Assembly: GCA_024697645.1 (NCBI GenBank)
Contig: JAILFH010000006.1
Location: 28,721 to 92,720 of the forward strand
DNA: 64,000 nt
From: Prevotella sp.
GTDB lineage: Bacteria > Bacteroidota > Bacteroidia > Bacteroidales > Bacteroidaceae
Direction: 5' to 3'
This document shows, one piece after another, positions 32,325 through 55,390 of the stretch. The position numbers were made by a program, and so were the translations under genes. Within the stretch, counting starts at the first letter, position 1. Each line of letters begins with the position of its first letter. The notes beneath the pieces are model-generated. The model had not been told where the DNA came from and ran no database searches. It saw nothing but the letters and a program-made list of their open reading frames with translations.

Positions 32325-32704
32325 GTAGAAAATCTCTTTCTTGCACCATTCATAAACACTTTCTGACTAAAGGTATCCTTTAGACCTTACAAAGCATACC
32401 TTTCTATGTTAGAAAGCATACCTTTATACCTATATAAAGATATGCTCTGTATGGTAGAAAGGACACCTCTATACAGTCAAAAGGTCATCTCTGTATAGTC
32501 GAAAGGATAACTCTGTATAGTCGAAACCAATGCTTTATTGATTCAATGGAATTGTTCTATATGAATACGACGATTTCTTTTGAAAAATCTAAAACGAGAG
32601 AATTGAGTTCATAGAGCAAACATAAAAACTATATTGAAACACTGTAGAGATTCAATATATTGGGTTAATAACAAACAGTAATTACTTAAGTAAGAACAAC
32701 AAAA
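32325..32704. other. Intergenic region between convergent tamL and GldB-like genes
   Basis: No gene seen. It is dominated by one 22-bp repeat array. The remaining 160 bp, next to the GldB-like gene, is AT-rich, and I see no good terminator for either gene. Confidence 0.7.
32369..32545. repeat. Tandem repeat array, family A, locus 1, eight units
   Basis: Eight contiguous units, seven of 22 bp and one (the third) of 23 bp. Most begin AAAG(C/G)AT or AAAGGT, carry CTTT or CTCT at positions 11-14, and end in TAG, TCG or TAC. The 23-bp unit ends CTATAT. Units 6 and 7 (TCTCTGTATAGTCG and ACTCTGTATAGTCG endings) are nearly identical. The arrays at about 42.2 and 55.3 kb belong to the same family and orientation. 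Confidence 0.92.
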
Positions 32705-33571
32705 TTACTTTGCTTGCTTCGGTGCATTCATCACAGAATCCTTTCCAACTGTAGTTTCAGCGTTATCAACGTGAACGCTTTCGGGAGAAAGGAATTCTTC
32801 TATTTTTGTTCTAGGATGCTTCTTCATGTATTCATCTGCCTTCTCTACCAATCTTGTTCTGAAGAACTGCTGTCCCAGAGCCTTATTTGCGACCCACATC
32901 ACGCGTCCCATATGTATGTCTCGTTCTTCTTGGCTACTGTTTTCAAGATTAGTCATTTGATAATGGCTAAGTAGATAGAAAACCAAACAATCAGGAACGA
33001 TGTTTTTTCGATTCATTGTCTTTCGTTGAACTTCCTCGAAGAAACTTGCGTAGATAGGGAAGTCTGCTCCAAGATACTTGTCAAGTGAAACCCCGATCAT
33101 GTTTTCGCCAATGACGATGCTTTGTCCTAAAGCACCAATCTGAGAATAGACAATCGGCATAGGGAGAGAGGGGAGGAGTTCTTGCAAGCGGTCAAAACTC
33201 TTCTTCAACTGCTTGTCGACATCGCTCATATCGGCATACTGATATTCTGCTTCGCTAATCAGTATTTGAAGCAATGAATCCTGGAAGAAATTCAGGAATT
33301 TATTGTTGATACCAGGGTCATTCACTTCACCAAGTTGAAGCATATCCTCGATAAGCGTACGGGTTTCCATAGGATACTCGGTGTTCATCTCCTGAAGCGC
33401 AGCAAAATCGCCTGTTGTAAGGTAACGACTTTCTAAACGATCGTATCGTTGCACTTTCATCTGCAACGATGGGTCGTTTTCCTCATTCGGCTTGAGTTTA
33501 AATTCACAAGCAACGCAGGCAAAAGCCAGCAAAAGAGTGAGGCTATAGAAGAAAATGGCTACCTTTTTCAC
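32705..33571 (-). CDS. GldB-like lipoprotein
   Basis: A 288-residue lipoprotein (GTG start, hydrophobic core, Cys22 in ACVAC). The mature part matches the GldB pattern: QRYDRLE near the N-terminus, NDPGINNKFLNFF, and IVIGENMIGVSLDKYLGADFPIY. GldB was defined by gliding mutants of Flavobacterium. Non-gliding Prevotella and Bacteroides keep relatives whose role is unclear, so gliding should not be inferred. The -7 box is 20 bp upstream. The C-terminal 20 residues are charged and variable. Confidence 0.78.
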   Translation of the reverse strand: MKKVAIFFYSLTLLLAFACVACEFKLKPNEENDPSLQMKVQRYDRLESRYLTTGDFAALQEMNTEYPMETRTLIEDMLQLGEVNDPGINNKFLNFFQDSLLQILISEAEYQYADMSDVDKQLKKSFDRLQELLPSLPMPIVYSQIGALGQSIVIGENMIGVSLDKYLGADFPIYASFFEEVQRKTMNRKNIVPDCLVFYLLSHYQMTNLENSSQEERDIHMGRVMWVANKALGQQFFRTRLVEKADEYMKKHPRTKIEEFLSPESVHVDNAETTVGKDSVMNAPKQAK

Positions 33572-33590
33572 CTTTTTAAACTTAACAGTT

Positions 33591-33599
33591 GCAAAATTA
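33591..33599 (-). promoter_or_regulatory. -7 promoter box for the GldB-like gene
   Basis: Minus-strand TAATTTTGC, 20 bp before the GTG start. Confidence 0.65.
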
Positions 33600-33693
33600 C
33601 TAAATTTTATTTAATTCTCCAAATATTTCGCTAAAAAAGTTAAAAATATAGCCTAAAAAGGGCAAATTAACTTTATTTTTTTGAAAAAAGACG

Positions 33694-33702
33694 TAAGTTT
33701 GT
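33694..33702 (+). promoter_or_regulatory. Possible -7 promoter box for the first DUF4861 gene
   Basis: TAAGTTTGT matches TAnnTTTG but lacks the final C common to other boxes in this window. It lies 37 bp before the ATG. Confidence 0.5.
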
Positions 33703-33738
33703 AGATGTAAAAACTGATTAAAAATACCATCAACCAAT

Positions 33739-34986
33739 ATGAAACGACTATTTTTTGCCTTTCTGCTGATGTCTGCAGCAAGTTTTAGTGAAGCAAAAAC
33801 CCTACGGGTAGAAGTGAAGAACCCAACCAAGCAGGAACGCACTTGTGTTCCAGTCGTAATCGACTTGTCTTCCTATGGACTTGTACGTTCTGCTTCTGTA
33901 ACGGGTGAAGGTTCTGTAGTGAGCCAACTGGATGATCTGGATCAGGATGGAATTTACGAGGAACTCTGCTTCTTGACGAGCCTTTCGGCTAAAGAAACAA
34001 AGACATTCACTGTAGAACTGAAGGAAGAAGAGGCAACCGAGAATGCGCAAGAAAGTCGTGTCTATGTAGAGATGTTGCTGTCGAACAAGAAGGTGAAGGA
34101 ACAGAACAAGCATGATCTCTATATCTCGAGTCTTACAGTAGACAGAGGTGTGAATCCATATAATCAACTGCATCATCATGGTGCTGCTTTCGAAAACAAT
34201 CTCGTTGGCTATCGAATTTATTTCGATCATAGGCAGACTGTTGACATTTATGGCAAATATCTTCGTGGTTTGGAATTGCGCGATACGCAGTTCTATCCTG
34301 ACGAAACGCAGAAGAAAAATGGTTATGGTGACGATATTCTCTGGGTTGGTAGTACGTTCGGACTTGGAACACTGCGCGGATATGATGGAACACAGCCAAC
34401 GATGATTAACGATGTGATGCATCGCACACAGCGAATTTTGTCTCGTGGTCCTTTACGTACAGTTGTTGAGGTTGTTGACGAAGGATGGCTTCCCGATGGA
34501 GGTAAGGAGCGTATTACGATGATTACTCGGTACACGCTTTATGCTGATCGTCGCGACTGTCAGGTTGAAGTGAATATCAAGCCTTATGCTAAATTGGAAA
34601 GACCTGATTCCCGAACGATTGGATTCTCAACAGGAATTATCAACGTGAAGAACTCTGTGGAGTTTTCTGATAAACACGGACTTCGTGGTTGCTGGGGAAC
34701 TGATTGGCCTGTTTCGGAAAAAGATTCGTTAGGCCACAAACGCGAAACTGTAGGACTTGGTATTAGTTTGCCTCAACAGACTATTGTTAAGGAATGGGAG
34801 GCTGACAAAGACAATTATGGCTACGAAGTGCGTATTCCGAATAATCATCTCCAATATTATATCACATTCGGTTCTGATAATGAAGGTTTCGGTTATCATT
34901 CAGCCGATGCTTGGTTCGAATATCTTCGTCAGTGGAAAAAAGATATAACAAATCCCGCCGTTATTCGAACAACTTTGGTTGAATAA
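33739..34986 (+). CDS. DUF4861-family secreted protein (copy 1)
   Basis: The 415-residue protein has a signal peptide (about 19 residues, ending SEA-K). An N-terminal beta-sandwich region (LRVEVKNPTKQERTCVPVVI) is followed by the DUF4861 core: NLVGYRIYFDHRQTVDIYGK, a GCWG-type motif, YYITFGSD and the closing WFEYLRQW. DUF4861 proteins of Bacteroidota are often found in polysaccharide-use loci; their reaction is not established here. A second, more divergent copy lies at about 45 kb. The last codons and stop sit inside a hairpin shared with the convergent transglutaminase gene. Confidence 0.82.
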   Translation: MKRLFFAFLLMSAASFSEAKTLRVEVKNPTKQERTCVPVVIDLSSYGLVRSASVTGEGSVVSQLDDLDQDGIYEELCFLTSLSAKETKTFTVELKEEEATENAQESRVYVEMLLSNKKVKEQNKHDLYISSLTVDRGVNPYNQLHHHGAAFENNLVGYRIYFDHRQTVDIYGKYLRGLELRDTQFYPDETQKKNGYGDDILWVGSTFGLGTLRGYDGTQPTMINDVMHRTQRILSRGPLRTVVEVVDEGWLPDGGKERITMITRYTLYADRRDCQVEVNIKPYAKLERPDSRTIGFSTGIINVKNSVEFSDKHGLRGCWGTDWPVSEKDSLGHKRETVGLGISLPQQTIVKEWEADKDNYGYEVRIPNNHLQYYITFGSDNEGFGYHSADAWFEYLRQWKKDITNPAVIRTTLVE

Positions 34987-34994
34987 CGACGGGA
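34953..34994. terminator. Bidirectional hairpin overlapping the stop codon of the DUF4861 gene
   Basis: TCCCG-C-CGTTATTC on one arm pairs with GAATAACG-A-CGGGA on the other, with one mismatch and a one-base bulge. The DUF4861 TAA is inside the right arm. On the minus strand, T-rich sequence follows, so it probably ends the transglutaminase gene transcript. Confidence 0.6.
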
Positions 34995-35039
34995 AATATA
35001 ATTTCTGTATTTACCTTAGATTTGGAGAGTAGATGAAGA

Positions 35040-37736
35040 TTAGAGTTTATGAATAACTTTCTGGAACTGCTCTCCAAGTCCGATTGTATAGCCTTCTGAA
35101 GCGAATACAACGCGGTTAAAGGTGTCTGCAATAATGAATACGGGCAACTGTCCGCCTGTACTCATCTTCATTTGTGTTGCAATTTGGCGACGGATGCTTC
35201 CATCAACATCAATGCCATAGACCACATTCTTAGGCAGCGCACCGAAGTTTTCTGTTGCATATTTCTTAGCATCGGCCTCACTCTCGAACAAAAGTACAAG
35301 AGGACGTCCCCATTTGTCAAGTTCAGCCTTTGCCTTAGCGATATCGCGCATAGCGTGATTGGTGGGTTCTTGTCCGACTCCGAGAACACCCACTACGAAA
35401 TAGCCACGACCCGTCTGTGAGAGAATCGAAACAACGTCTTTACCAACTTTCACCTGATTTGCATTAGAAGAAGCACCAAGACCCGAAACAGGAAGGAATT
35501 TCGACTCTGAATCGAACGAACCGATGATGCTTACGTCTGAATCGCTCTGGCGCATACGCAGTTCAAGAGCAGTTGTCTTGCCCGCCTCAATGGTAAACTG
35601 CTGATTGGTGGCAAGTACAGACCCATTGGCAAGGCGAGTGCCTGTTGTTAGCAAATAAGTACCAACATCAAGTTTAGTTCCCTTGCGGAATGTGTTGTTC
35701 CAACTTGTTCCTCCGCCCATATCAACTTGTCCTTCCTCAAAATTGAGAAGATGAGTCTGACCATTGTCACTAATGCGGGAGATTGTGAAGTGGCTATAAT
35801 ACTTGGGATCATCGAGCATTGGAGTAGGTTCGTAAGTGAGCATGATGGTTCCAGTTTCTGCTGTCTTCTGCTGAGTAGCCTCAAAGTCAATATCAACCCA
35901 CTCACCAGAACCAGATTTATATTGTACCTTGCCTGTTACAACATCTTTGCGAGCCTCTATTCCGAGCGAGCGGGCTACATCAACAAAGAAGATATCGCGC
36001 GAACGAGTATCAGTCATGCGAGATTTCCAGACGCCTACCGGAGTTTGAGCGATGCGAAGTGCCTTATCGTCGGGGTAAATCTTTATATTCTCTTTAATCC
36101 ACTGGACTAAGAGGGAAGGATTTTCCTGAATAGATTTCTTGTCGACTTTCGTGCCATCAGCAAGCGTCCATGACTGGTTAGCAAACTCACCTTCGAACAT
36201 CTGCTTAAATGGAAGGATAATCATTTCGTTCTCTACACGTGGACAGAGTTGATCGCTCTCAGCGGAGAAGTTGTCCTCGAGAATCTGTGCAGGCATATCG
36301 CGAAGGTCCTTATAACTAAGGCTACGTAGCAATTTGAGGGCACGTTCCTCATTGTCGGCGTGACGATAGAGGAAATCGAGCAGAGTACGCCAGTTACCAC
36401 GTGACATTGCCAAAAGGTTCGCAGCCTTTGGATAGATGCGATTTGCTTCTTCCTTCGTAAGGAATGTTGCCTCATAGGCTTTACGAATCACGTCCTCTTG
36501 TGCGAAACGTTCCTTATTCTTTGCAGCCATTTCTGGACTTACCTCAGGCATAACAGCCTGTTCGGGAGGAGGAACAATGTCGACACTGACAGGTTTAAAC
36601 GCACTTGCTACTGGGTGCTGATTGTTTTGGCTAAGTTTAATAGTGATTTTCTTATCCTTGCCGAATGAAGCCTTTGCGTAACCAAACCATCCGTCTTTAG
36701 AAGCCCAGACGAGCATATCGCCCTTACCTGCGGTGAGGAAGGTATTACCTTTTGTATCCGTATATTTCGTTACGGCTGTGTAGAACTCAGCATAGTTATA
36801 AATCTTGAAATCTACTCGAGCACCATTTACGGCCTTTCCCTTTCGGTCTACAATGCGGAAATCTACACGGGCAGTAGAACCATAATTATCAATAAGGTTG
36901 ATTTCAGTGAAGTTGCTTGTACGCAACATCACTTCCTCAGGACCATTATAATCTCCAAAAGCACGAGTGTGCATAAGCATAGCACGAGAGGCAGGAGCAT
37001 TGAACCAGCCCAAATTCAGCACTGCCTCAGGTTCACAAGCACCCAGGAAATACCACTGACCATCAGCCCAAGCCTCTACCCAAGCGTGATTATCGTCCGT
37101 GTGAGCCCAACGGGGAGTATAAACCTGACGAGCAGGAATGCCTACAGAACGCAGAGCGGCAACCGTGAATGTCGATTCTTCGCCGCATCGACCAATTGCA
37201 CCCTGAACACAAGCAAGAGGAGCAAGTGTGCGTCCGTCACTTGGCTGATAGGTCACATGTTCGTGACACCAGTGGTTTACTTCAAGGATTGCTTCCTTCA
37301 TTGGGAGGCCAGCAATACGCTTTTTGAGTTCCTTGAAGAACACCTGACGAGAATCATCAAGAGGTTCGTTGTTGATTCGCTCTGGCAAAACGAAATGACG
37401 GAAGAGCAATTCGGGTACATCTTTACCCCAACTCATCTCTTTGCGAGCCTGAAACGCAGTGCGAACATTGGCTGCATGAAATGAAGTAGGGTAGTCCGTA
37501 ATGTCTGCCAACGCCATGTAGGCATAGAGGAAATGAAGCGCATCTGTTTCCTCGGTGTTAAGGTCTAGTCCTTCAGCGTTAAAGAATTGTTCTCCAACGA
37601 GTTGCATCTTTTCGTTAAAGGCATTCTCTACTTTAGCGCGATAAGTTTCGTCGCTAATAAAACGCTTGTTGTCCTGAGCGGCAAGATGCATTGAAAGCAA
37701 AAGACTTAGGACAAGTGTTGTCATTACTTTTTTCAT
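35040..37736 (-). CDS. Large exported transglutaminase-like protein
   Basis: 898 residues with a signal peptide (cleavage near AQ-DN). The transglutaminase-like core is at about 150-235: GRCGEES with Cys184, then DDNHAWVEAW with His217. The third residue, normally Asp in a LDPT-like motif, falls in LGACEPE, so a classical triad Asp is not obvious. A carboxypeptidase-regulatory-like beta domain follows (VDFRIVDRKGKAVNGA). The C-terminal 150 residues resemble a thioredoxin fold (VLFESEADAKKY) without a CXXC. The reaction is unknown: protein cross-linking, or protease or amidase activity, are options. Confidence 0.8.
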   Translation of the reverse strand: MKKVMTTLVLSLLLSMHLAAQDNKRFISDETYRAKVENAFNEKMQLVGEQFFNAEGLDLNTEETDALHFLYAYMALADITDYPTSFHAANVRTAFQARKEMSWGKDVPELLFRHFVLPERINNEPLDDSRQVFFKELKKRIAGLPMKEAILEVNHWCHEHVTYQPSDGRTLAPLACVQGAIGRCGEESTFTVAALRSVGIPARQVYTPRWAHTDDNHAWVEAWADGQWYFLGACEPEAVLNLGWFNAPASRAMLMHTRAFGDYNGPEEVMLRTSNFTEINLIDNYGSTARVDFRIVDRKGKAVNGARVDFKIYNYAEFYTAVTKYTDTKGNTFLTAGKGDMLVWASKDGWFGYAKASFGKDKKITIKLSQNNQHPVASAFKPVSVDIVPPPEQAVMPEVSPEMAAKNKERFAQEDVIRKAYEATFLTKEEANRIYPKAANLLAMSRGNWRTLLDFLYRHADNEERALKLLRSLSYKDLRDMPAQILEDNFSAESDQLCPRVENEMIILPFKQMFEGEFANQSWTLADGTKVDKKSIQENPSLLVQWIKENIKIYPDDKALRIAQTPVGVWKSRMTDTRSRDIFFVDVARSLGIEARKDVVTGKVQYKSGSGEWVDIDFEATQQKTAETGTIMLTYEPTPMLDDPKYYSHFTISRISDNGQTHLLNFEEGQVDMGGGTSWNNTFRKGTKLDVGTYLLTTGTRLANGSVLATNQQFTIEAGKTTALELRMRQSDSDVSIIGSFDSESKFLPVSGLGASSNANQVKVGKDVVSILSQTGRGYFVVGVLGVGQEPTNHAMRDIAKAKAELDKWGRPLVLLFESEADAKKYATENFGALPKNVVYGIDVDGSIRRQIATQMKMSTGGQLPVFIIADTFNRVVFASEGYTIGLGEQFQKVIHKL

Positions 37737-37839
37737 AAGAATAGTTTTATTTGGTAGATTTTTTCTTTCAATTGAACGTCAAAAATGATAAGTTATTTGT
37801 TATAATCTCACAAAAATGCAAGGTTAAAATTGAGAAGAA

Positions 37840-39915
37840 TTACGGTTTTGTCTTTTCCTTAAGTAAATCTTCGAGGCGGATAATTTCGTCACGATACTGA
37901 GCAGCCTGCATAAAATCGAGTGCTTTTGAAGCCTCTTTCATGAGTGCACGAGTATTCTCAATGCTCTTCTCAAGTTGTTCTCTACTCATCTGCAAGATAA
38001 TTGGGTCGGCAACCATAGAACCTTCCGCGGGTTCGATATAGGGAACAAAACCTGTAGCAGTTTTGGCAGCAGTTGGAGGAGTCTTTGTAGAACCCATACG
38101 ACCACGTTCGTCTTCTTTTCTTGTAGATTGAAGCGAAGTATTGATTGCCTTGACTATCTGGCGCGGAGTGATTCCGTTTTCCTCGTTGTATTTCAGTTGC
38201 TTCGTGCGGCGGCGAAGTGTCTCGTCGATAGTGAGTTGCATGCTTTCGGTAATCGTTTCAGCATACATAATAACCTTTCCATTGACATTTCTGGCAGCGC
38301 GACCCGCAGTTTGAGTAAGTGAACGACGGCTACGCAAGAATCCTTCCTTATCCGCATCAAGAATGGCAACAAGTGATACTTCGGGAAGGTCAAGTCCCTC
38401 TCGCAAGAGATTGACGCCAACGAGAACATCGAAGCGACCTGCTCGAAGATCAGCCATAATCTGAACACGGTCTAGTGTTGCTACGTCGCTATGAATATAG
38501 TTTGCCCGAACATCATGATTCAGCAGATATTCGGTAAGTTCCTCGGCCATTCGCTTTGTAAGCGTTGTGACAAGAACGCGCTCATCTCGTTCTGCGCGCT
38601 GTAGAATCTCTTCAAGTAAGTCGTCAATCTGATTCTCGTTTGATCGAACTTCTATCTCTGGGTCGAGTAGGCCAGTGGGTCGGATAAGTTGTTCAACTAC
38701 AACACCCTCACTTTCCATCAACTCGAAATCTGCAGGTGTTGCAGAAACATAAACCACTTGATGGATCATCTCCTGAAACTCTTCGAATCGCAATGGGCGA
38801 TTATCAAATGCCGCAGGCAGACGGAAACCAAACTCCACAAGGTTACGTTTGCGGGCTCTGTCGCCCCCATACATAGCATTCAGTTGAGGTATCGTCACAT
38901 GACTTTCATCGATAAAGAGTAGGTAATCATCAGGGAAGAAGTCCAACAAACAATAAGGCTTCTGTCCCGCCTCGCGACCATCAAAATAGCGGCTGTAATT
39001 CTCAATTCCCGAGCAATGACCAAGTTCCTTGATCATCTCCATATCATATTCAACGCGTTCCTTGATGCGCTGAGCCTTCAATGTGTCGCCAATTTCATTG
39101 AAATAGTCAATTTGAGCAGTCAAATCGTCTTGAATCTGACGTATTGCCAATTCGGTCTGTTCCTTTGAAGTAACAAACAGATTGGCAGGATAGATTTTAT
39201 ATTCCTCAAACGTTGCAAGTTGGTGATAATCAACCGAATCAAGTTCTTCAATCGAGTCGATTTCATCGTCCCACCAGGTTACTCTCAGCACATGATCGGA
39301 ATAAGCCATAAAGATGTCGACATGATCACCTTTCACTCGGAAGTTTCCACGTTGAAGGTCGATGTCGTTTCGAACATAAAGCGCATTAACAAGTTGACGG
39401 AGAAAGACATTCCTGTCAAGAGTCTGTCCTTTGCGAGCAGAAATGACGCTTTCCTGCATTGCAGTCGGTCCTCCCATACCATAGATGCAAGAAACACTCG
39501 AGACGATGACAACATCCTTACGTCCCGACAACAAAGAAGATACTGCCGACAAGCGTAAGCGGTCAATATCTTCGTTGATGGCCAGATCTTTCTCAATATA
39601 CGTATCGGTCTGAGGAAGATAAGCCTCAGGCTGATAGTAATCGTAGTAACTTACATAGTATTCAACTGCATTCTCTGGGAAGAATCCTTTCATCTCCTCA
39701 TAAAGTTGGGCAGCAAGTGTTTTGTTGTGGCTGAGAATAAGGGTCGGCTTTCCCGTCTGGGCAATGACGTTTGCCATTGTGAAAGTCTTGCCTGAACCCG
39801 TAACGCCCAACAGCACCTGTGCTCGGTCTCCGCGTTCAATACCTTCAGTAAGTTGTCTGATGGCTTCGGGTTGATCACCCGTTGGTTTGTATTCTGATGT
39901 TAGTTTAAAGTCCAT
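37840..39915 (-). CDS. uvrB: Excinuclease ABC subunit B
   Basis: UvrB is the damage-verifying helicase subunit of nucleotide excision repair. 691 residues from the chosen ATG. It shows TSEYKPTGDQPEAI, Walker A GVTGSGKT, the YYDYYQPEAYLP beta-hairpin, LFIDESHV, the C-terminal helicase motifs (ADKEGFLRS, QTAGRAARNVNG) and the UVR coiled coil at the end (MREQL-like SREQLEKSIENTRALMKEA). An in-frame ATG 21 bp upstream encodes MSKFASN, but homologues begin MDFKLTSEY and the -7 box lies inside that extension. A UvrA gene is not in the window. Confidence 0.96.
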   Translation of the reverse strand: MDFKLTSEYKPTGDQPEAIRQLTEGIERGDRAQVLLGVTGSGKTFTMANVIAQTGKPTLILSHNKTLAAQLYEEMKGFFPENAVEYYVSYYDYYQPEAYLPQTDTYIEKDLAINEDIDRLRLSAVSSLLSGRKDVVIVSSVSCIYGMGGPTAMQESVISARKGQTLDRNVFLRQLVNALYVRNDIDLQRGNFRVKGDHVDIFMAYSDHVLRVTWWDDEIDSIEELDSVDYHQLATFEEYKIYPANLFVTSKEQTELAIRQIQDDLTAQIDYFNEIGDTLKAQRIKERVEYDMEMIKELGHCSGIENYSRYFDGREAGQKPYCLLDFFPDDYLLFIDESHVTIPQLNAMYGGDRARKRNLVEFGFRLPAAFDNRPLRFEEFQEMIHQVVYVSATPADFELMESEGVVVEQLIRPTGLLDPEIEVRSNENQIDDLLEEILQRAERDERVLVTTLTKRMAEELTEYLLNHDVRANYIHSDVATLDRVQIMADLRAGRFDVLVGVNLLREGLDLPEVSLVAILDADKEGFLRSRRSLTQTAGRAARNVNGKVIMYAETITESMQLTIDETLRRRTKQLKYNEENGITPRQIVKAINTSLQSTRKEDERGRMGSTKTPPTAAKTATGFVPYIEPAEGSMVADPIILQMSREQLEKSIENTRALMKEASKALDFMQAAQYRDEIIRLEDLLKEKTKP

Positions 39916-39922
39916 ATTCGAT

Positions 39923-39931
39923 GCAAATTTA
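39923..39931 (-). promoter_or_regulatory. -7 promoter box for uvrB, giving a very short leader
   Basis: Minus-strand TAAATTTGC. The chosen ATG follows by 7 bp, leaving a predicted leader of only a few nucleotides. The box also overlaps the alternative upstream start. Confidence 0.5.
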
Positions 39932-40016
39932 CTCATTTTCTATTAAATAAACGTTAGAAAACCCGTTAAATTCCCAAAAATCTTTTAAATGCTTTTGGAA
40001 TTTGTGGAATTATGTG

Positions 40017-40025
40017 TAATTTTGC
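40017..40025 (+). promoter_or_regulatory. Promoter of the bamD operon (-33 and -7)
   Basis: TAATTTTGC with a TTTG at 39994-39997, a 19-bp spacing that fits the Bacteroidota -33/-7 layout. It is one of the best promoters in the window, 20 bp before the ATG. Confidence 0.75.
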
Positions 40026-40045
40026 AGGTCAAAACAAAAGAATAG

Positions 40046-41926: not shown

Positions 41927-41980
41927 TTCCTTATTATAAATAAGGTGGTATTTAAGGAAAGTATTTTCCAGATTTTCTGA

Positions 41981-42080
41981 TGGTAGGTCTATGGTAGGTG
42001 TTAAGAGAAGACCTACCATACTCTAGTCCCTTTATTCATCGGCTTTTGCGAGGAGTTATGGTAGGTGGGTAGGTCTTATT
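41981..42080. repeat. TGGTAGGT motif cluster able to form alternative hairpins
   Basis: TGGTAGGT occurs at 41981, 41992 and 42059, with a further GGGTAGGT at 42067. The inverse ACCTACCA is at 42011. The inverse copy extends to AGACCTACCA, which pairs exactly with TGGTAGGTCT at 41981, or as ATGGTAGGT/ACCTACCAT with the copy at 41991. The two pairings exclude each other. Confidence 0.7.
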
Positions 42081-42117
42081 GAGCAAAAAGTTTATAATCC
42101 TTTTGATGAACTTATAC

Positions 42118-42295
42118 AAAGCATGCCTTTATACCTATATAAAGGATGCCTTTCTACCTTACAAAGCATGTCTTTATACCCCTATAGAGCATGCTTCTCT
42201 ATGGTAGAAAGCATGTCTTTCTATGGTCAAAAGGATAACTCTGTATGGCAGAAAGCATTGCTTTCGTTTGTTAAGAGGATTGCTTTCGAAAGTTA
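42118..42295. repeat. Tandem repeat array, family A, locus 2, eight units
   Basis: Eight contiguous units (22 bp, two of 23 bp) begin AAAGCAT, AAAGGAT or AGAGCAT. A ninth, decayed unit may follow to 42317. Unit order partly matches locus 3: a unit ending CTACCTTAC, a 23-bp unit ending in CTAT, then later AAAGGATAACTCTGTATGG followed by AAAGCATTGCTTT. Orientation is the same as at the other two loci. Confidence 0.92.
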
Positions 42296-42419
42296 ATAGG
42301 ATATTTTCCCATTTCAAAGAACTCACAGCAAATTTTGTCGTCAAGAAAAAGTCGAAATAAAAAGAATGAAAAGAAACAAATATCTGTTGGCATTGTTCGG
42401 TTTTTTCGATTATTTTTTT

Positions 42420-47899: not shown

Positions 47900-48492
47900 C
47901 AGTTTTTCTTCAGTTCTTTGGCGCGTCTCTTAGCATCTTCCATTGCCTTGCGCTTATTCTCTTTCTTTTCCCGTTTGTCTTTCTTTGCCTTAGTTTTGGC
48001 TGCTTTACGAGCGGCTTTCAATTCTGCCTTTTCCTTCTTGATAGCCTCTTTCAACTCTGCCTTTGTATATTTGGCTTCAGGCGAATCGAGAATGATGTTT
48101 TCAAACTTGAATGCGTTGCCTTCGATAAACTTTACAATATAATTGCCTTTTGTCGTATATCGTTTTCTTAGTTTCAGAAATCTCTTCTCAATCTTCTTTC
48201 TCTTGTCTGAGAAGAAAATGGTGCATGTCGGTTCATCTTCGCCATTCGTTTCCATATAGTTTTTCAACTGATAGGCAAAGTTCTCACGACTATAGAGAAA
48301 CTTGGTCTTGGAATCAATCCATGCAGAGTCAACCAATTGAATATCTGTAAAATACACGATGGAATCATTAAATGATGATACGAATCCAAACATGTAGACG
48401 GGTGTTAGTTCGTTAACGGCAAGCACTTTTGTCGGCGTCAGAGCAGAAAACGCCAAAAGCAAGGTTGCCAAGAGTGTTTTTTTGAATTTCAT
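47899..48492 (-). CDS. Exported protein with Lys-rich coiled tail, function unknown
   Basis: 197 residues with a signal peptide ending near VLA-V. The middle is a small beta/alpha region (LTPVYMFGFVSSFNDSIVYF, CTIFFSDKRKKIEKRFLKLR). The last 55 residues form a charged helix rich in Lys, Ala and Glu, which would be highly basic in the periplasm. I do not recognise a family. It starts 21 bp after the rpoD stop and overlaps the kinase gene by 1 nt, so it heads the cassette while possibly being transcribed with rpoD. Confidence 0.75.
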   Translation of the reverse strand: MKFKKTLLATLLLAFSALTPTKVLAVNELTPVYMFGFVSSFNDSIVYFTDIQLVDSAWIDSKTKFLYSRENFAYQLKNYMETNGEDEPTCTIFFSDKRKKIEKRFLKLRKRYTTKGNYIVKFIEGNAFKFENIILDSPEAKYTKAELKEAIKKEKAELKAARKAAKTKAKKDKREKKENKRKAMEDAKRRAKELKKN

Positions 48493-48513
48493 TTTCTTAT
48501 ATTATCATTATTT

Positions 48514-49377
48514 CTATTTACCGAGGTAAGTCTTTAGGGCTTTACTCTTGGTGTTGCTGCGGAGTCGTCTGATGGCTTTTTCCTTAATCTGACGAACGCG
48601 CTCACGAGTCAATCCATATTTCTGACCAATTTCCTCAAGAGTCATTTCGGGTTGATTAATGCCATAGAATGCCTCAATTACATTACGCTCGCGCTCGTTG
48701 AGAGCCTTCAGGGCATGAATGATTTCCTCACGAAGTGACTCAGCCAGAAGAATGTTGTCCGTATCAGGCACATCGCTATTGGGGAGAATATCAAGCAGAC
48801 TGGTCTCATCACTCTCAGAGAAAGGCGCGTCGACCGAAATCTGACGTGTGTAATGCGACATTGCTTCGGCAATCTTCTCTTCAGGAAGTTCAACTGTTTC
48901 CGCAATCTCGTTTACGTTAGGACGTCGCTCGTTCTCCTGAACGAACTTGTTCAAGGCCTTGTTGATCTTACTTACCGAACTCACCTGATTCAGTGGAAGT
49001 CTGACAATACGGCTTTGCTGAGCAATAGCCTGCATAATGCTTTGGCGGATCCACCACACAGCAAAGGAGATGAACTTGAACCCACGGGTTTCGTCGAAGC
49101 GCTCAGCAGCCTTCATCAGTCCGAGATTGCCTTCGTTGATCAAGTCGGCAAGACTCAGTCCTTGATTCTGGTACTGTTTGGCAACGGAAACTACAAAACG
49201 CAGGTTTGCTTTTGTCAGACGCTCAAGTGCCTCACGATCGCCCTTGCGTATACGCTGGGCAAGTTCTACTTCCTCTTCGGCAGTGAGCAATTCCTCATGG
49301 CCGATTTCCTGTAAATATTTGTCAAGAGATGCACTTTCACGATTAGTGATTGAGTTGGTAATCTTCAATTGCCTCAT
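48514..49377 (-). CDS. rpoD: Primary RNA polymerase sigma factor RpoD (sigma-ABfr type)
   Basis: This 287-residue group-1-like sigma has region 1.2 ([10 protein letters not shown]), region 2 ([44 protein letters not shown]), region 3 and region 4 ([29 protein letters not shown]). It lacks the long N-terminal region 1.1 of proteobacterial RpoD, as is normal in Bacteroidota. It recognises the TAnnTTTG promoters listed in this window. Its own -7 box overlaps the htrA terminator. Confidence 0.96.
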
Positions 49378-49406
49378 TTGTCACGTAGGATTTTATGTGT
49401 TAAAGT

Positions 49407-49415
49407 GCAAAAATA
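49407..49415 (-). promoter_or_regulatory. -7 promoter box of rpoD, inside the htrA terminator
   Basis: Minus-strand TATTTTTGC, a consensus match 30 bp before the rpoD ATG. Its first two bases are the end of the hairpin stem and its T-run is the U-tract of the terminator. Confidence 0.65.
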
Positions 49416-49450
49416 CGGCTTTTCTACGAAATAAACGAAGAAAAGCCGTA
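49414..49450 (-). terminator. htrA terminator overlapping the rpoD promoter
   Basis: A perfect 12-bp stem (TACGGCTTTTCT / AGAAAAGCCGTA) with a 13-nt loop. On the minus strand TTTTTGC follows the stem directly. On the plus strand it is followed by eight T. Confidence 0.8.
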
Positions 49451-49482
49451 ATTTTTTTTGATTTTATTGAAACGTTTTTGAT

Positions 49483-50955
49483 TTATGCGCTTAAGTCAAC
49501 TACGAAATATGCTTTCTTTCCTGTAGGATAGATACCCTTGATGATGAGAACGGGCTCCTTGCTCATCGAAGCATCCTTCACTACTTTCTGCAAGTCTTCG
49601 ATCGTCTTCATATCCTCATCATTAACCTTTTGGATAATGAATCCCTTAGTAATACCAGCGTCTTTCAACTTGCCGTTGTTCACTTTGAGTACTTCAAGAC
49701 CATAGTTGATGTCAAGTTGTTCCTTCTGCTGATTGGTAACAGGACGAACGTCTGCACCAAGCACATCCATATCAGCCTGTTTCACAACCTTGGTATTACC
49801 CTGAGCATTCTTCAGAGTTGCAGTCTTCGTAACACTCTTCTTATTATGAAGGAATGTGAGGCTAATCTTGTCGCCAGGACGCTTGTTAAACATGATTTCC
49901 TGAAGTTCAGACATCTTAGTAACTCGCTTGCCATCGATGTGAGTAATAACGTCACCCTTCTCAAGACCGATGTCTGCACCAGCACCATCGCTCTCAACTT
50001 CTGAGACATAAACACCTTCGTTTGTACCAAGGTCAACTTCCTTCTCAGAATCCTTCTCCTTCTGCTCATTGATGTAGTTGATTACGTCTCCACCTTTGAT
50101 GCCGAGCAGTGCACGCTGAACAGTTCCGTACTGTTTGATGTCGGCAACTACCTTATTCATCAGCGTTGTAGGAATAGCAAATCCGTAACCGATATTAGAA
50201 CCAGTCGGGGATACGAGCATGTCGTTAATACCTACGAGTTCACCGCGAGCGTTTACGAGCGCACCACCTGAGTTACCCTGATTGATGGCAGCATCAGTCT
50301 GAATGAACGATTCAACACCATTAGCACCGATTGAGCGGGCCTTTGCAGAAACGATACCTGCAGTGACTGTATTGTTCAATCCAAGCGGATTACCAACTGC
50401 CAATACCCATTCACCGACCTTCAGATCGTCGCTATTGGCAATAGCGATGGTGGGAAGATTCTTGCCGTCAATCTTGATAAGGGCAAGGTCTGTCGTTTTG
50501 TCAGTACCAACGATGCGGGCAGAGAACTCACGATTGTCATTCATAGTTACTGTCAATTCGTCAGCACCTTCTACCATGTGGTTGTTGGTCACGATATAGC
50601 CATCAGATGAAATGATTACACCCGAACCTGTAGCGGTTTTCTTAGGAGTCTGCACTCTACGCTCGCGAGTACCGCCATTGCCCTGATTGGGTGAACCGAA
50701 GAATCCGAAGGGATCATTGAAGAAATCTTCGAAGGGATCGCTCTGTACACGAACGGTCTGCGTCTTCGAGTTCTGTACATATTTAATATGCACCACAGCA
50801 GGCAGCGCCTTCTCTGCGGCGTATGTAAGATCGACGGGTTGTCCTGAAATGGTTACTGCATCACTTGCTGCATTGACTTTCATGAAAGTCCCTGCGGAGA
50901 TACCGAGTGCTGCTATGCACATGGCACCAAACAAATACTTCTGAAACTTTTTCAT
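49483..50955 (-). CDS. Do-family periplasmic serine protease/chaperone (DegP/HtrA)
   Basis: 490 residues with a signal peptide (AALGISAGTF...NAA). The trypsin-like domain carries His126 (NNHMVEG), Asp156 (TTDLALI) and Ser229 (GNSGGALV). Two PDZ domains occupy about 270-380 and 390-485 (the first with GLEKGDVITHIDG). It has a linker rich in Phe/Asp/Pro/Gly near residues 74-95 like the DegP LA loop. It degrades or refolds damaged envelope proteins. rpoD lies directly downstream but separated by a terminator. Confidence 0.95.
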   Translation of the reverse strand: MKKFQKYLFGAMCIAALGISAGTFMKVNAASDAVTISGQPVDLTYAAEKALPAVVHIKYVQNSKTQTVRVQSDPFEDFFNDPFGFFGSPNQGNGGTRERRVQTPKKTATGSGVIISSDGYIVTNNHMVEGADELTVTMNDNREFSARIVGTDKTTDLALIKIDGKNLPTIAIANSDDLKVGEWVLAVGNPLGLNNTVTAGIVSAKARSIGANGVESFIQTDAAINQGNSGGALVNARGELVGINDMLVSPTGSNIGYGFAIPTTLMNKVVADIKQYGTVQRALLGIKGGDVINYINEQKEKDSEKEVDLGTNEGVYVSEVESDGAGADIGLEKGDVITHIDGKRVTKMSELQEIMFNKRPGDKISLTFLHNKKSVTKTATLKNAQGNTKVVKQADMDVLGADVRPVTNQQKEQLDINYGLEVLKVNNGKLKDAGITKGFIIQKVNDEDMKTIEDLQKVVKDASMSKEPVLIIKGIYPTGKKAYFVVDLSA

Positions 50956-51008
50956 TTTTACTTATTGTTTTAAATTGAAATTTAACTTCTACTGAACATT
51001 CTGACGGA

Positions 51009-51130
51009 TTTAGAGCCGTTTCGTTTATTTTGTTATTGCAAATTTAGACGCAAAAATTGTTAAACTGACAATTTGGCGCTCATCTTTATTCCATTTTAAC
51101 AATCGAAAAGGTAGAATTAACGGCTCTTAA
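51009..51130. repeat. Inverted repeat around the htrA promoter
   Basis: TTTAGAGCCGTT (51009-51020) is repeated in inverse form as AACGGCTCTTAA (51119-51130), matching at 11 of 12 positions. Between the arms are the htrA -7 box and a smaller hairpin (AAATTGT / ACAATTT). Confidence 0.6.
51038..51046 (-). promoter_or_regulatory. -7 promoter box for htrA
   Basis: Minus-strand TAAATTTGC, giving a leader of about 80 nt. Confidence 0.6.
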
Positions 51131-51219
51131 ATGCCAAAAGGCAGGATTTTACATTAATTTAATCTGTTAAATAGGGATAAAAAAATCATGACATCCGTCG
51201 AAATACCATCAAAAATATC

Positions 51220-51228
51220 TATCTTTGC
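51220..51228 (+). promoter_or_regulatory. -7 promoter box for rnpB
   Basis: TATCTTTGC, about 10 bp before the predicted RNA 5' end. Confidence 0.7.
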
Positions 51229-51236
51229 ACCCGTAT

Positions 51237-51624
51237 CAGAATGCAGTATCCCGGCTCTGTCGCTGGCTCTAAGATAGGGCGAGAGGAAAGTCCGGGCAGC
51301 AAAGGACGCTCCACTTCCGAAAATAGAAGCTGTGGGAAACCGCAGGCGTAGGCAGAAGAAAACAACCGCTCCGCTTAAGGGAGTAAGGGTGAGAAGGTGG
51401 TGTAAGAGACCACCAGCCGACGGGTGATCGTCGGGCTGTGCCAACTGGAGGCTGCAAGTTCGCGTATACCGTCGGCTGAGGGTTGTCCGCCCGAATAGTT
51501 CGCTTCCGATGGAGGGTAGAACGCTAGAGCCGTGGGGTGACCTGCGGAGTAGATAAATGACAGGCACCTGTTGTGTTGAGAGGCGCATCAGGAACAGAAC
51601 CCGGCTTATAGGGGTGCTGCTTTC
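51237..51624 (+). ncRNA. rnpB: RNase P RNA (bacterial type A)
   Basis: The catalytic RNA that matures tRNA 5' ends. The universal 5' core GAGAGGAAAGTCCGGGC and the 3' core ACAGAACCCGGCTTATAG are both present about 300 nt apart, as expected. The end helix P1 pairs GCAGTATCCC (51243-51252) with GGGGTGCTGC (51611-51620). A T-rich tract follows the 3' end. The ends are set from P1 and the promoter, so they may be off by a few bases. Confidence 0.95.
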
Positions 51625-51639
51625 TTTTTTATCAACTTA

Positions 51640-52074
51640 ATGAAAATGAATCTTAACATGCAGAAGAATGACCTTCCCGACTTCATGTCGTATAAAGACA
51701 AATTTACAAAGAGTGGATTTGTTGAGAAAGTTGCTCGCATTGCAAAGCGTGCTGGTGTTAAACTCGTTTACGCTGCACTGATCCTCTATTATACACTTGA
51801 GAGTCCCAATATTTCCTTTAAGGATAAGGCTATCATCATCGGTGCTTTAGGTTATCTCATTACGCCACTCGACGTTGTGCCAGATGCAATACCTATTGCT
51901 GGTCTGAGTGACGATTTAGCAGTACTCGTCTATGTTCTCCATCGTGTTTGGGGAGACGTTTCTGAAGACGTAAAAGCAAAGGCTAAGGCAAAACTTGCCC
52001 AGTGGTTCGACGAAGATGAAATCATTACTGCTGATTCTGTTTTCGACACTGACCCTAACGAAGGACCGGTATAA
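51640..52074 (+). CDS. DUF1232 (YkvA-like) small membrane protein
   Basis: The 144-residue protein carries the DUF1232 signature PLDVVPDAIPIAGLSDDLAVL (here split as PLDVVPDAIP and GLSDDLAVL) within two hydrophobic helices. The N-terminus is charged (LPDFMSYKDKFTKSGF) and the tail is acidic (WFDEDEIITAD). Function unknown. It starts only about 15 bp after the rnpB 3' end and may share its transcript. In-frame ATGs at codons 1, 3 and 7 are all possible starts. A clear terminator lies 120 bp downstream. Confidence 0.85.
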   Translation: MKMNLNMQKNDLPDFMSYKDKFTKSGFVEKVARIAKRAGVKLVYAALILYYTLESPNISFKDKAIIIGALGYLITPLDVVPDAIPIAGLSDDLAVLVYVLHRVWGDVSEDVKAKAKAKLAQWFDEDEIITADSVFDTDPNEGPV

Positions 52075-52196
52075 TCGGGATTGTTGGTTGCCAATTTGAA
52101 TCGCATTTTTCCAACATATTCAACTCCGATGGATGGGTGAGAGTTTATTCTACAAGAAAGTAAACAAATAATCTAGATTATATTTATAGGAAAAGA

Positions 52197-52224
52197 CAAG
52201 AGCCTTGCAGTTGCAGGGCTCTTG
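52197..52224. terminator. Terminator between the DUF1232 gene and the GH127-type gene
   Basis: A 13-bp stem (CAAGAGCCTTGCA / TGCAGGGCTCTTG, one G-U pair) with a 2-nt loop is followed by CTTTTTATT on the plus strand. AAAAG precedes it, so it could also act on the convergent gene. Confidence 0.85.
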
Positions 52225-52297
52225 CTTTTTATTGTCTTTCAAGTGTTACTTCTTCTTGCGATTTGCATTATCACTTGTGAATTGTTATTTGTAGCCG

Positions 52298-55096
52298 TTA
52301 TTCATTAAAAAGAGGAGTGAGTTGCTTAACAGCGCGCTCAATCATGTCCTTTGTACCGCTACCGTCATTCACATATTTTGTAACCATCTGCCCATAACGA
52401 ACAGCCTGTCGCTTTTCTGTACTCATTGAACGCCAATCTTGTCCACGAGTTTTCTCCATCAGTTGCTGAAGTGGGGCGAGATCCTCAGGTTCTGCAAGAT
52501 TTCCTGGGCGCATTGTATTCAATGCAGCATTCAGTGCAGCAGCAGTTTTGTCAACCAATTCGCCACTCTTAGCCCAATCTGCTCCATTTTCTTTAGCCAG
52601 CAATTCACAAGCCTGAGCATATTGAGTAGCCATTCGCTCATAACCATAAGGAGCCCAAGGAGAATGTTCGGGGACTTTTACTTCGAGTTTCATCCACGCT
52701 TCCTGAGCATCAATACGCTTTTTCGCCATTTGGGCCAAACTGCGAAGTACTGTTGCATCGGCTTCACCGCCTTGTTCTACAGGTGCATCAATACGGAAAT
52801 AGTGAGTGATGTGGCGGTCTGCGTTGTAATCAGCAACCAAGTCAAACTTAGTTAAGTCATCACCTTCACGCAGAGTTGCCTCGTCCCAAGAGTTTAGATT
52901 CTTAGCAGCCATTACCAATGGACCTTCCATCAGAGCCGCAGCCCATCGAGGTTCATAAGCCTTTCGGCGCTGATCGATTTCCATCTTGTCAGGAGCAAAG
53001 TCTAAATGGCGACCGAAAGGCATCGTGATCTCAACAACGTCCTTTTTTTTCCATTTGCGCATCGGAATCTCTACGTAACTGCAAGGCTGATAGTTTTTGG
53101 CAACTTCCTTGCCGTTTAACTTTACGGAGAAACCGTCAGTTGCCCAATAGGGAACACGTAACTTCATCACGAAACGACCTTTTCCTTCTGTCACGCGAAT
53201 GACACTCTTTTCTGCAGGCCATTCACATTCTTGCTGAATCGTTACTTTCTTTGCATCCCACTGAGCACAAGTTGGCATGTAGAGCGCAACCCAGAGCGTA
53301 TCAGCACCAGCAAAATAGGCAGCCTCTTGGTACTTAACGTGATTTTCGGCGCCTGTTCCACCACAACAAGTGCTTTGCGGAGTCTCATTGCCCCAAGGCT
53401 TTGAAGCATTCAGACCTACTGCATACTGATAGAGAACAGCATACTGATGCTGATTCAAAGAACCAACAAGTTGATTGCTCAGCAGACGTTCGTAGTAGTC
53501 CATATAGCGTGCATCATTGGGATTGAAGCAGTTTAGGTCCTTCGTCAATTTCGCCAGATTATAGGCGCAGCAAGTCTCGTTCAGAGTCGGATCGTTATTT
53601 GTGGCCATTGAGAGAGTCTGCGTGTAAGGCTGTCGGAACATCTCACCATTACCAACACCTCCCATCGCATAACGATAGCGGCCTTGAATCATTGACCAGA
53701 AGTTTTGCGCAATATTATAATAATGTGAATCACCACCAGCACGATAGGTTCTCAGGGCACCCGTCACCATTGGAATATGCTGATTAGCGTGACGAGTTCT
53801 AATGGCGTCAATATTCTTGGCAAGCGGATCGAAGAACGCAGGGCTATCGAAGTAGGTTGCTGCTTCCAAAAGACGGGCTTTCTCAGTAGGATCAGAAACC
53901 ATTTCCGAAAGACGTGCAAGCGATTCTTCCATACCTCCAACTTCACCTGCAATATACATGTTCCACATCTCGTAACGGTTTCCTGGCTTAGCGCGACGTT
54001 CTTCAGCACTTCCGTCTTTCTTTACAAATGTTCGATAGTGGAGTCGGTTCCAAACCCAAAGTCCCATGTCTTTTGCTATAAGTAAAGCCTTGTCAGCCAA
54101 TTCCTTATCATCGATGTAGTTAGCAATGTCGATGAGTCCTGCCAACTGTTTATGAACAGTGTAGTAGGGAGCCCATACCCAGTCTTCATTGTTATAGGCA
54201 CGATACATCTCAATGAGCACGCAATGCTGAGCAGGAATTGCATTCAGATAACCATAACCATAACGAGTGTAATCCTGCTTGTATCGGTCAAAATCGCTCC
54301 ATTTTCCTCCTAATCCACGAAGTTCTGCCTCAGGAGCAAGGTCGCGAGCCTCCCAATAGCGGCCAAGCGAATCGTTCCAGACGAAAGTCCGCTCCTGACA
54401 AGCACGAAGTTCATTAATCATTGTGCGAATTCTATCGCGCAGTTGGTCACGCTTTGCTTGGTCTGTGCAACTTGCAAAAGCAAGAGCAAGAGCCGACATA
54501 TAGTGACCAGTTCCGTGACCTTTTAGTTTGGTAGTAGGGGAGTCCCAACCATCGGCTTCTGGATAGCCTTCCTTCGGCAGACCATAAGTGTCATGATAGT
54601 TGTAGAGTTGCTGACGAACATCGAGACTCAGCAGATTGTCAATATCGCAGTCTCGGTTCTTGGTCAATCGGTTATCTCCCGTCAACCAAACCTTGTTCAG
54701 AGGAAGCGGTTCAGCCACTTTCGAAGGTGCAGTCTTGCCTGATGCAATCACTTTCACATGAGCCACTACAGGAAATCCCCCCGATGTTTTGTTGTCTCCT
54801 ACAACATATCCTGCTACGTCATAGGTAGAACCAACTGGAGTTGTCTTACTATCGGCTTCTGCTGCCTCCTCATCGGCTAATGCATTCGTCCATCTAACTA
54901 GTCGCCACTCGCTGCGTCCGTCTTCATAAGTTGCCCACACTTGATAGGGCAGTTGAGGTGCATTTCCCACAACTGTTTCCACATTGATTTCCTCCACATG
55001 AGAAACACGTGGCAGATTCAACACCTGCTGTGCCCACAAACACATCGGAGCGAGCATCAATGTCAGCAGCAATGCGATTTTCTTCATTTTTTCCAT
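52298..55096 (-). CDS. GH127/GH146-superfamily (DUF1680) glycosidase with Ig-like N-domain
   Basis: This 932-residue exported enzyme has a signal peptide (start at codon 1 or 4), then an Ig-like domain (about 22-125, with VWATYEDGRSEW and TYDVAGYVVGD). An (alpha/alpha)6 domain carries LKGHGTGHYMSALALAFAS, YTVHKQLAGLIDI, NETCCAYNLAKLTK and TCCGGTGAEN. The two CC motifs resemble the zinc-cysteine site of these beta-L-arabinofuranosidases, with a Cys as nucleophile. A C-terminal helical region (about 810-932) is extra. It probably acts on L-arabinofuranosides of plant glycans. Which of GH127 or GH146 applies cannot be settled by eye. Confidence 0.83.
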   Translation of the reverse strand: MEKMKKIALLLTLMLAPMCLWAQQVLNLPRVSHVEEINVETVVGNAPQLPYQVWATYEDGRSEWRLVRWTNALADEEAAEADSKTTPVGSTYDVAGYVVGDNKTSGGFPVVAHVKVIASGKTAPSKVAEPLPLNKVWLTGDNRLTKNRDCDIDNLLSLDVRQQLYNYHDTYGLPKEGYPEADGWDSPTTKLKGHGTGHYMSALALAFASCTDQAKRDQLRDRIRTMINELRACQERTFVWNDSLGRYWEARDLAPEAELRGLGGKWSDFDRYKQDYTRYGYGYLNAIPAQHCVLIEMYRAYNNEDWVWAPYYTVHKQLAGLIDIANYIDDKELADKALLIAKDMGLWVWNRLHYRTFVKKDGSAEERRAKPGNRYEMWNMYIAGEVGGMEESLARLSEMVSDPTEKARLLEAATYFDSPAFFDPLAKNIDAIRTRHANQHIPMVTGALRTYRAGGDSHYYNIAQNFWSMIQGRYRYAMGGVGNGEMFRQPYTQTLSMATNNDPTLNETCCAYNLAKLTKDLNCFNPNDARYMDYYERLLSNQLVGSLNQHQYAVLYQYAVGLNASKPWGNETPQSTCCGGTGAENHVKYQEAAYFAGADTLWVALYMPTCAQWDAKKVTIQQECEWPAEKSVIRVTEGKGRFVMKLRVPYWATDGFSVKLNGKEVAKNYQPCSYVEIPMRKWKKKDVVEITMPFGRHLDFAPDKMEIDQRRKAYEPRWAAALMEGPLVMAAKNLNSWDEATLREGDDLTKFDLVADYNADRHITHYFRIDAPVEQGGEADATVLRSLAQMAKKRIDAQEAWMKLEVKVPEHSPWAPYGYERMATQYAQACELLAKENGADWAKSGELVDKTAAALNAALNTMRPGNLAEPEDLAPLQQLMEKTRGQDWRSMSTEKRQAVRYGQMVTKYVNDGSGTKDMIERAVKQLTPLFNE

Positions 55097-55191
55097 TGGG
55101 TTCTGTTTTTATTTTGTTTTTTATTGTTCTAAGTTAGATTAAATATCTCGTTTTCACCTCATTTGAAGCCTCTTTTTACAGACCTTCATAT

Positions 55192-55390
55192 AAAGCATAT
55201 CTTTAGATGTTAGAGAGGATACCTTTCTACCTTACAAAGCATGCCTTTATACATATATAAAGCATGCCTTTCTAGGGTCGAAAGGATAACTCTGTATGGT
55301 CGAAAGCATTGCTTTACACAGTCGAAAGGATTGCTTTGTCAGATAGAGAGTATTCCTTTATACGATTAAGTGCATTGCTTCATTTAGTCT
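55192..55390. repeat. Tandem repeat array, family A, locus 3, nine units
   Basis: Nine contiguous units, eight of 22 bp and one (the third) of 23 bp. They include AAAGCATGCCTTTMTA, AAAGGATAACTCTGTATGG and AAAGCATTGCTTT variants in an order shared with locus 2. The array lies between the predicted start of transcription and the GH127-type coding region. Confidence 0.92.

What the first reader, a model, noticed from the sequence alone, without database searches (positions are those of the whole stretch)
32369..55390. Dispersed family of 22-bp tandem repeat arrays at three intergenic loci
Seen directly: arrays at 32369-32545 (8 units), 42118-42295 (8 units) and 55192-55390 (9 units) are built from related units of 22 bp, with an occasional 23-bp unit, all in the same orientation. 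Units begin AAAG(C/G)AT, have CTTT/CTCT about 10 bp later and end TAG, TCG or TAC. Unit order is partly shared: a unit ending CTACCTTAC, then a 23-bp unit ending in CTAT(AT), and later AAAGGATAACTCTGTATRG followed by a unit with TTGCTTT or ATGCTTT. Shared order implies whole blocks were copied and then diverged. There are no spacers and no coding potential. 22 bp is about two helical turns, so a protein could contact the same face of the DNA in each unit. The half-unit AAAGCATGC-TTT is nearly palindromic, which would fit a dimeric binder. A nucleoid-organising or regulatory element is inference.
Basis: partly seen in the sequence, partly recalled or inferred. Interest (0 to 1): 0.78.

Follow-up and report, generated by a model that had tools for sequence, protein, structure and literature searches.

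The report
Evenly spaced 22-bp palindrome arrays
This bacterial genome holds about a hundred short intergenic arrays of palindromes repeated every 22 base pairs, relatives keep the 22-bp step while changing the sequence, and the arrays are likely docking rows for an unknown DNA-binding protein that would help organise the chromosome.

Summary
The three arrays are real, at the stated coordinates (8, 8 and 9 units). They belong to a family of at least 101 loci in this genome. Each unit is a 13-bp interrupted palindrome, AAAG-N5-CTTT, plus a linker; the step is 22 bp with few exceptions besides 23-bp centre units. Linker orientation flips about the centre and the far end decays. Four further results: (1) In tandem repeats sampled without regard to sequence from other members of the genus, 59 of 161 arrays have period exactly 22, with differing, often palindromic cores; none was found in small samples of other Bacteroidales families (241 kb) or E. 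coli (200 kb). (2) Array sites mostly differ between related species. (3) Within contigs 0 of 42 gaps between listed arrays are under 8 kb (11.5-14.2 expected), although one weak extra array lies 1.1 kb from a listed one and contig breaks may hide others. (4) Arms of single copies show no compensatory matching, so an RNA or cruciform hairpin is not supported. Best reading: phased dimer-binding sites, BIME-like in role but without a RAYT transposase. Protein and function are untested; a selfish mobile repeat is the main rival.

The parts
32369..32545 (+). Array A1, 8 units, between convergent Omp85/TamA-like and GldB-like genes; 23-bp centre unit at 32413-32435
42118..42302 (+). Array A2, 8 units plus the start of a degenerate ninth, between DUF4293 and DPPIV-family genes (same direction); 23-bp units at 42118-42140 and 42163-42185
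55192..55390 (+). Array A3, 9 units, between divergent GH127 and CstA genes; 23-bp centre unit at 55236-55258
32413..32435 (+). Centre unit of A1, after which linker orientation flips
55236..55258 (+). Centre unit of A3
21975..22055 (.). Separate 22-bp array with another core (AATAAGTGACATATTACTTAGC, 3.7 copies)
22200..22297 (.). Separate 22-bp array with another core (GTATTAAATGTGCAATCAGTTT, 4.5 copies)

Best explanation
The three arrays are copies of a family of at least 101 arrays in this genome, nearly all intergenic, each a row of 13-bp interrupted palindromes set 22 bp apart, and they likely act as docking rows for a dimeric DNA-binding protein that would sit on one face of the helix and help organise the chromosome. 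Shown: the unit anatomy, the steady 22-bp step, the flip of linker orientation about a 23-bp centre unit, placement outside long genes with a bias to convergent gene ends, the lack of close neighbours among listed copies within contigs, and the same 22-bp step with other cores in related species. Inferred: that each palindrome binds a protein dimer, that neighbouring dimers touch because they are two helical turns apart, that binding specificity changes together with the core between species, and that the spacing reflects a chromosome-scale role. New arrays probably arise at new sites over evolutionary time by an unknown route.
For: Core positions 1, 3, 4, 10, 11 and 13 are 85-100% conserved in units -2 to +3 of 95-99 copies, while the five central bases have a top base of 35-83% and about half of the linker positions vary. 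Steps are 22 in 95 of 95, 98 of 99, 95 of 98, 82 of 86 and 76 of 81 cases outside the 23-bp units (the parser allows only 21-24), although A2 and other listed copies are only about 72-82% identical. In relatives, period 22 makes up 36 of 118 and 23 of 43 arrays; 53% and 52% of those units reach dyad score 5 versus 13-14% of letter shuffles. By eye, cores or their arms stay while linkers differ in L036 and L050. In G160 two different cores follow one another in one 22-bp register (L467). Own context: convergent 33, tandem 17 and 15, divergent 8 of 73 loci with both neighbours; in other genomes' gaps of 150 bp or more 110 of 531 are convergent. Spacing: 0 of 42 gaps under 8 kb versus 14.2 expected (uniform) and 11.5 (intergenic-weighted); G227 0 of 23 versus 4.6.
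Against: No protein was identified and no binding was tested. Only about half of the period-22 units in relatives reach dyad score 5, and 3 of 12 sampled genomes (G369, G208, G254) showed no period-22 array. 26 of 118 contig ends lie within 1.5 kb of an array, so short gaps may be hidden by assembly breaks; the match list was cut at 150 of 282; one weak second array lies 1.1 kb from a listed one (L078). The orientation flip is not universal: L043 of G201 runs one way throughout. Differing sites between species are also what a purely selfish repeat would show.
Confidence: 0.42

Rival explanations
1. A non-autonomous mobile repeat, like a MITE or REPIN, spread by an unidentified enzyme in trans and without a host role; the 22-bp palindromes would be what the enzyme recognises.
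Against: No Y1 transposase domain found in the own genome; no gene family next to more than 3 of 154 arrays; no leader or tail common to the family was seen (terminal inverted repeats and target duplications were not searched separately). It does not explain the over-dispersed spacing or the 22-bp step with other cores.
Confidence: 0.33
2. RNA element: the array is transcribed and folds into hairpins that end transcription or protect mRNA 3' ends.
For: Most of 31 copies fold much better than 30 shuffles on both strands (z from -17.8 to -0.9; weakest L020, L022, L024); bias to convergent gene ends; single units fold slightly better than shuffles (-1.46 vs -0.5 kcal/mol, 675 units).
Against: Real copies are not more stable than chimeras built from units of the same position in other copies: the 38 LLC copies are less stable (Z +2.7 to +4.3) and the 18 LCC copies about equal (Z -0.4 to +1.6). 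No clear strand preference. No Rfam match.
Confidence: 0.12
3. Neutral minisatellite: ordinary slippage makes tandem copies and the period 22 is incidental.
For: Unit number differs by one 22-bp unit between copies of one duplicated segment in G160 (L455 vs L457).
Against: Arrays of other periods (12-30, without 21-23) in the same genomes show no excess dyad symmetry (mean 2.0 and 2.55 versus 2.1 and 2.35 in shuffles), and no other single period is as common; few indels; shared unit order over 100 loci.
Confidence: 0.08

Closest known systems
BrickBuilt minisatellite MITE of Porphyromonas gingivalis (PMC4596501)
   Same: Bacteroidales; tandem 23-nt units without spacers; dispersed (19 copies); always intergenic; unit number varies; predicted long stem-loops
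   Different: There 23 nt, up to 22.8 units, with leader and tail segments and IS5-type terminal inverted repeats; here 22 bp, usually 7-9 clear units, ordered units with an orientation flip, no family-wide leader or tail seen, at least 101 copies. No sequence comparison between the two was run.
22-nt tandem direct repeats of P. gingivalis W83 (mentioned in PMC4596501, section 7)
   Same: Same period, same order of bacteria
   Different: Only the mention was seen; sequence, location and symmetry unknown to me, so a relation is open
REP / BIME elements with RAYT transposases (PMC2817692, PMC3733652)
   Same: Species-specific short palindromes, often more than 100 copies, extragenic, in some species regularly spaced in clusters; BIME-2 bind DNA gyrase and the inter-REP sequence IHF (passages seen)
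   Different: REPs are 20-40 bp with a GTAG or CGTC tag and often in doublets; here 13-bp cores at a fixed 22-bp step, no such tag conserved, no RAYT domain found in the genome
Plasmid iterons (recalled, no call)
   Same: Tandem protein-binding sites about two helical turns apart
   Different: Iterons are at one replication origin beside rep; these are at many chromosomal sites without a shared neighbour gene

Membership tests
REP/BIME | RAYT (Y1 transposase) in the genome | tested here: not met
   PF01797 search of own genome (92% complete): 0 matches; the same search rings in 5 of 14 control genomes
REP/BIME | GTAG or CGTC tag at one end of each palindrome | tested here: not met
   Column counts of 95-99 copies show no such conserved tetranucleotide
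REP/BIME | High-copy extragenic palindromes | tested here: met
   At least 101 loci; 84 of 100 overlap no kept ORF of 80 aa or more, the other 16 overlap only ORFs of 81-160 aa
BrickBuilt-type MITE | Tandem minisatellite without spacers, intergenic, dispersed | tested here: met
BrickBuilt-type MITE | Conserved leader and tail with terminal inverted repeats | tested here: inconclusive
   Sharp end has only a weak TTTATAT in front. 72 of 200 flanks (350 bp) join one similarity cluster; the rows I looked at lie in other repeats or in array tails, except that L070 and L104 share flank up to the array. Terminal inverted repeats were not searched separately
BrickBuilt-type MITE | Target-site duplication or empty site | not tested
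   Nearest relatives found are 69-71% identical in the Omp85 gene, so no empty site was looked for by alignment
Structured RNA family | Rfam match | tested here: not met
   cmscan of the window: only RNase P and two tRNAs
Structured RNA family | Compensatory covariation of paired arms | tested here: not met
   Position-matched chimera test, 56 of 100 copies used
Nucleoid-protein binding array | Specific protein bound at the units | not testable with these tools
   Needs pull-down, footprint or ChIP-seq

The most novel reading that the evidence does not exclude
A chromosome-organising system of Prevotella and near relatives: evenly spaced anchor arrays of dyads phased at exactly 22 bp, read by a DNA-binding protein whose specificity and sites evolve together so fast that each species has its own core while the geometry stays fixed.
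Probability: 0.3. Interest if true: 0.88.

Novelty: new variant of a known kind. Interest (0 to 1): 0.72.

Why it matters
Dispersed palindromic repeats are usually explained by a transposase that copies one sequence. Here a fixed geometry (often a palindrome, every 22 bp) recurs with different sequences in many members of a common rumen, gut and oral genus, and within this genome the listed arrays keep apart on the chromosome. If a protein reads them, Prevotella would offer a new and simple case of co-evolution between a genome-organising protein and its sites, directly testable by pull-down, ChIP-seq and contact maps.

Tried and rejected
RNA or cruciform hairpin: folding looked strong for most copies, but position-matched chimeras fold as well or better, so the symmetry belongs to the family consensus and is not kept copy by copy.

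REP/RAYT: no Y1 transposase found. A gene travelling with the arrays: among neighbour proteins of 80 aa or more of 154 loci the largest family is at 3 loci, all in G227.

Whole-array copying in G160: two identical arrays lie in a duplicated segment (a 1,560-column alignment at 99.8%), so they are no proof of array mobility.

Phage or plasmid origin: one exact-pattern scan of viral contigs found nothing; plasmid and phage record collections were not searched. The exact-pattern scan of species genomes found nothing (both scans may leave out the own genome and very near ones).

Literature: searches listed no report that I could recognise as 22-bp palindromic arrays in Prevotella. Only an open-licence library was searched. 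Seen: PMC4596501 abstract and sections 5, 7 (part 1), 8, 9; passages of PMC3733652, PMC5771137 and PMC2817692; all others in search listings only.

Rows dropped and choices made: 1 of 101 loci (C122) was not fetched; 1 of 100 had no centre run; the orientation choice uses tail-type cores and then rewards three units before the flip, which favours the count 82 of 99; the chimera test used 38 + 18 of 100 copies; the length of contig C122 (one locus, no gap) was assumed; 4 of the 12 genomes sampled (G003, G010, G024, G160) had a match to the own-family profile before.

Full report
Observation. The 19-bp form TANAAAGNNNNNCTTTNTA (at most 1 mismatch) occurs 13 times in the window, only inside these arrays, against 0.26 expected. 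A profile made from 24 copies finds no fourth copy of this family in the window at E up to 1. Two further arrays of period 22 with other cores lie at 21975-22055 and 22200-22297.

Family. BLAST of A2 against the own genome gave 62 rows, the profile R1 282 matches of which 150 were listed; merged, the listed ones are 101 distinct loci. One hundred were fetched with flanks. Each unit is a 13-bp interrupted palindrome plus a linker. After orientation, the common order is left-type linkers (GACC.TA), 1-2 units of 23 bp (ATACCTATAT, ATACCCCTAT or ATAGGTATAT), right-type linkers (TA.GGTC, the reverse complement of left), then decay. Left-type plus 23-bp units before the first right-type linker number three in 82 of 99 (49 LLC, 33 LCC), a count that the orientation rule favours. 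Orientation is 49 + and 51 -.

Constraint. Core positions 1, 3, 4, 10, 11 and 13 are 85-100% conserved in units -2 to +3; positions 2 and 12 and the five central bases vary, as does about half of each linker, while its TA steps are conserved. Central positions 6 and 8 avoid complementarity (17.5% observed, 39.7% expected, z -13), so the core is directional. The step is 22 bp in 95/95, 98/99, 95/98, 82/86 and 76/81 cases outside the 23-bp units; the parser allows only 21-24, so larger indels would end a chain instead of being counted. Most whole arrays fold well on both strands, but the position-matched chimera test gave no sign that arms are matched within a copy. This speaks against an RNA or cruciform function and leaves double-stranded recognition as the likelier one.

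Context. Of 100 loci, 16 overlap only small ORFs (81-160 aa); 73 of the rest have both neighbours: convergent 33, tandem 17 + 15, divergent 8. For comparison, 110 of 531 gaps of 150 bp or more in other genomes are convergent, and 18 of 54 period-22 arrays there. No neighbour gene family recurs at more than 3 of 154 loci. A second dispersed repeat of about 115 bp matches within 350 bp of at least 21 of 100 loci (rows of one flank).

Relatives. R1 matches 18 of 398 genomes of the genus including the own one at E 1e-5, with stricter filters. The four best matches to the Omp85 gene among the 398 (G348, G227, G223, G195; 69-71%) all carry matches (6 to 114 each); the next one, G284, has none of this family but has other 22-bp arrays. 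All 16 G227 arrays that I printed contain a 23-bp unit with a linker like ATACCCCTAT, ATAGGGGTAT or ATACCTATAT, at the third place in 6 of 16, with a different core. Positions mostly differ: 8 of 187 immediate neighbours of own arrays match an immediate neighbour of one of 54 G227 arrays; one locus (L138/L215) matches on both sides if the second gene on one side is allowed.

A wider class. To avoid a sequence bias I ran Tandem Repeats Finder on 40 stretches of 20 kb from 12 other genomes of the genus (4 of the 12 had an R1 match before, and L281 contains one) and on 80 named loci around uvrB. Period exactly 22 is the commonest single period: 23 of 43 and 36 of 118 arrays with at least 2.5 copies and period 8 or more, that is 29 and 23 per Mb. 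Of the 23, 11 come from the 8 genomes without a previous match; 3 of 12 genomes (G369, G208, G254) have none. Named records with period-22 arrays include Prevotella pallens, P. denticola, Hallella multisaccharivorax and Prevotella sp. oral taxon 376. Cores differ and about half are clearly palindromic; 2 of 59 lie in ORFs of 150 aa or more. Controls: 0 period-22 arrays in 53 loci (241 kb) of other families of the order, where 6.1 were expected (P 0.002), and 0 in 200 kb of E. coli; 1 in 26 loci (128 kb) of other genera of the same family, plus two of period 21 that look partly palindromic by eye, and 0 in 4 further loci (20 kb) of the own genus. These controls are small and most lie around two genes. 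In G160 one core (GGAGAYGGYCTYT) recurs at 14 loci, three of them in copies of one segment, with 64 matches against 1 for the reversed pattern; there a second core continues in register, and copies of the segment differ by one unit.

Spacing. Of 42 within-contig gaps between own arrays none is under 8 kb (minimum 8.6, mean 21.1, CV 0.46); uniform placement expects 14.2 and none of 5000 simulations reached zero. A null restricted to intergenic gaps and weighted by context, tiled from the window's own 13 gaps, expects 11.5 of 42; 0 of 2000 reached zero. G227: 0 of 23 against 4.6 (P 0.004). G348 and G195 have 3 and 5 gaps, minimum 17.9 and 15.9 kb. In G160, with 4 contigs, the 11 gaps readable are all above 11 kb, with little power. 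Caveats: 26 of 118 contig ends lie within 1.5 kb of an array, the list was cut at 150 of 282 matches, and a weak second array lies 1.1 kb from one listed copy (L078).

Conclusion. Shown: a high-copy, ordered, phased family, nearly all outside genes, with over-dispersed listed sites, one member of a class marked by period 22 and often dyad cores and not by one sequence. Inferred: phased binding of a dimeric protein with a chromosome-scale role. A selfish repeat moved by an unknown enzyme remains a serious rival, and both may be true.

Noticed in passing
window 21975-22055 and 22200-22297: Two further 22-bp tandem arrays with other cores in one intergenic region beside tRNA-Met, so this genome holds several 22-bp families.
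   Followed up: partly
window 41976-42082; flanks of at least 21 of the 100 own loci: A second dispersed repeat of about 115 bp with GGTAGG/CCTACC blocks lies within 350 bp of many arrays; intergenic repeat families cluster.
   Followed up: no
L010, L018, L022, L029 (upstream flanks): Several copies of a sub-family with GG-type centres lie next to short ACAAAGTAACAAGGTAAC-type tandem repeats and near contig ends.
   Followed up: no
L467 (G160:C1 about 228.7 kb): Within one array, GGAGATGGTCTCT-type units are followed by AACC-N5-GGTT units in the same 22-bp register.
   Followed up: no
L455 vs L457 (G160:C4): Copies of one duplicated segment hold arrays that differ by one 22-bp unit and in core sequence: unit gain or loss caught in place.
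   Followed up: partly
L047 and L048: By eye, arrays of two species are followed or preceded by nearly the same unrelated sequence of about 65 bp in opposite orientation.
   Followed up: no
window 51243-51624: RNase P RNA, class A.
   Followed up: no
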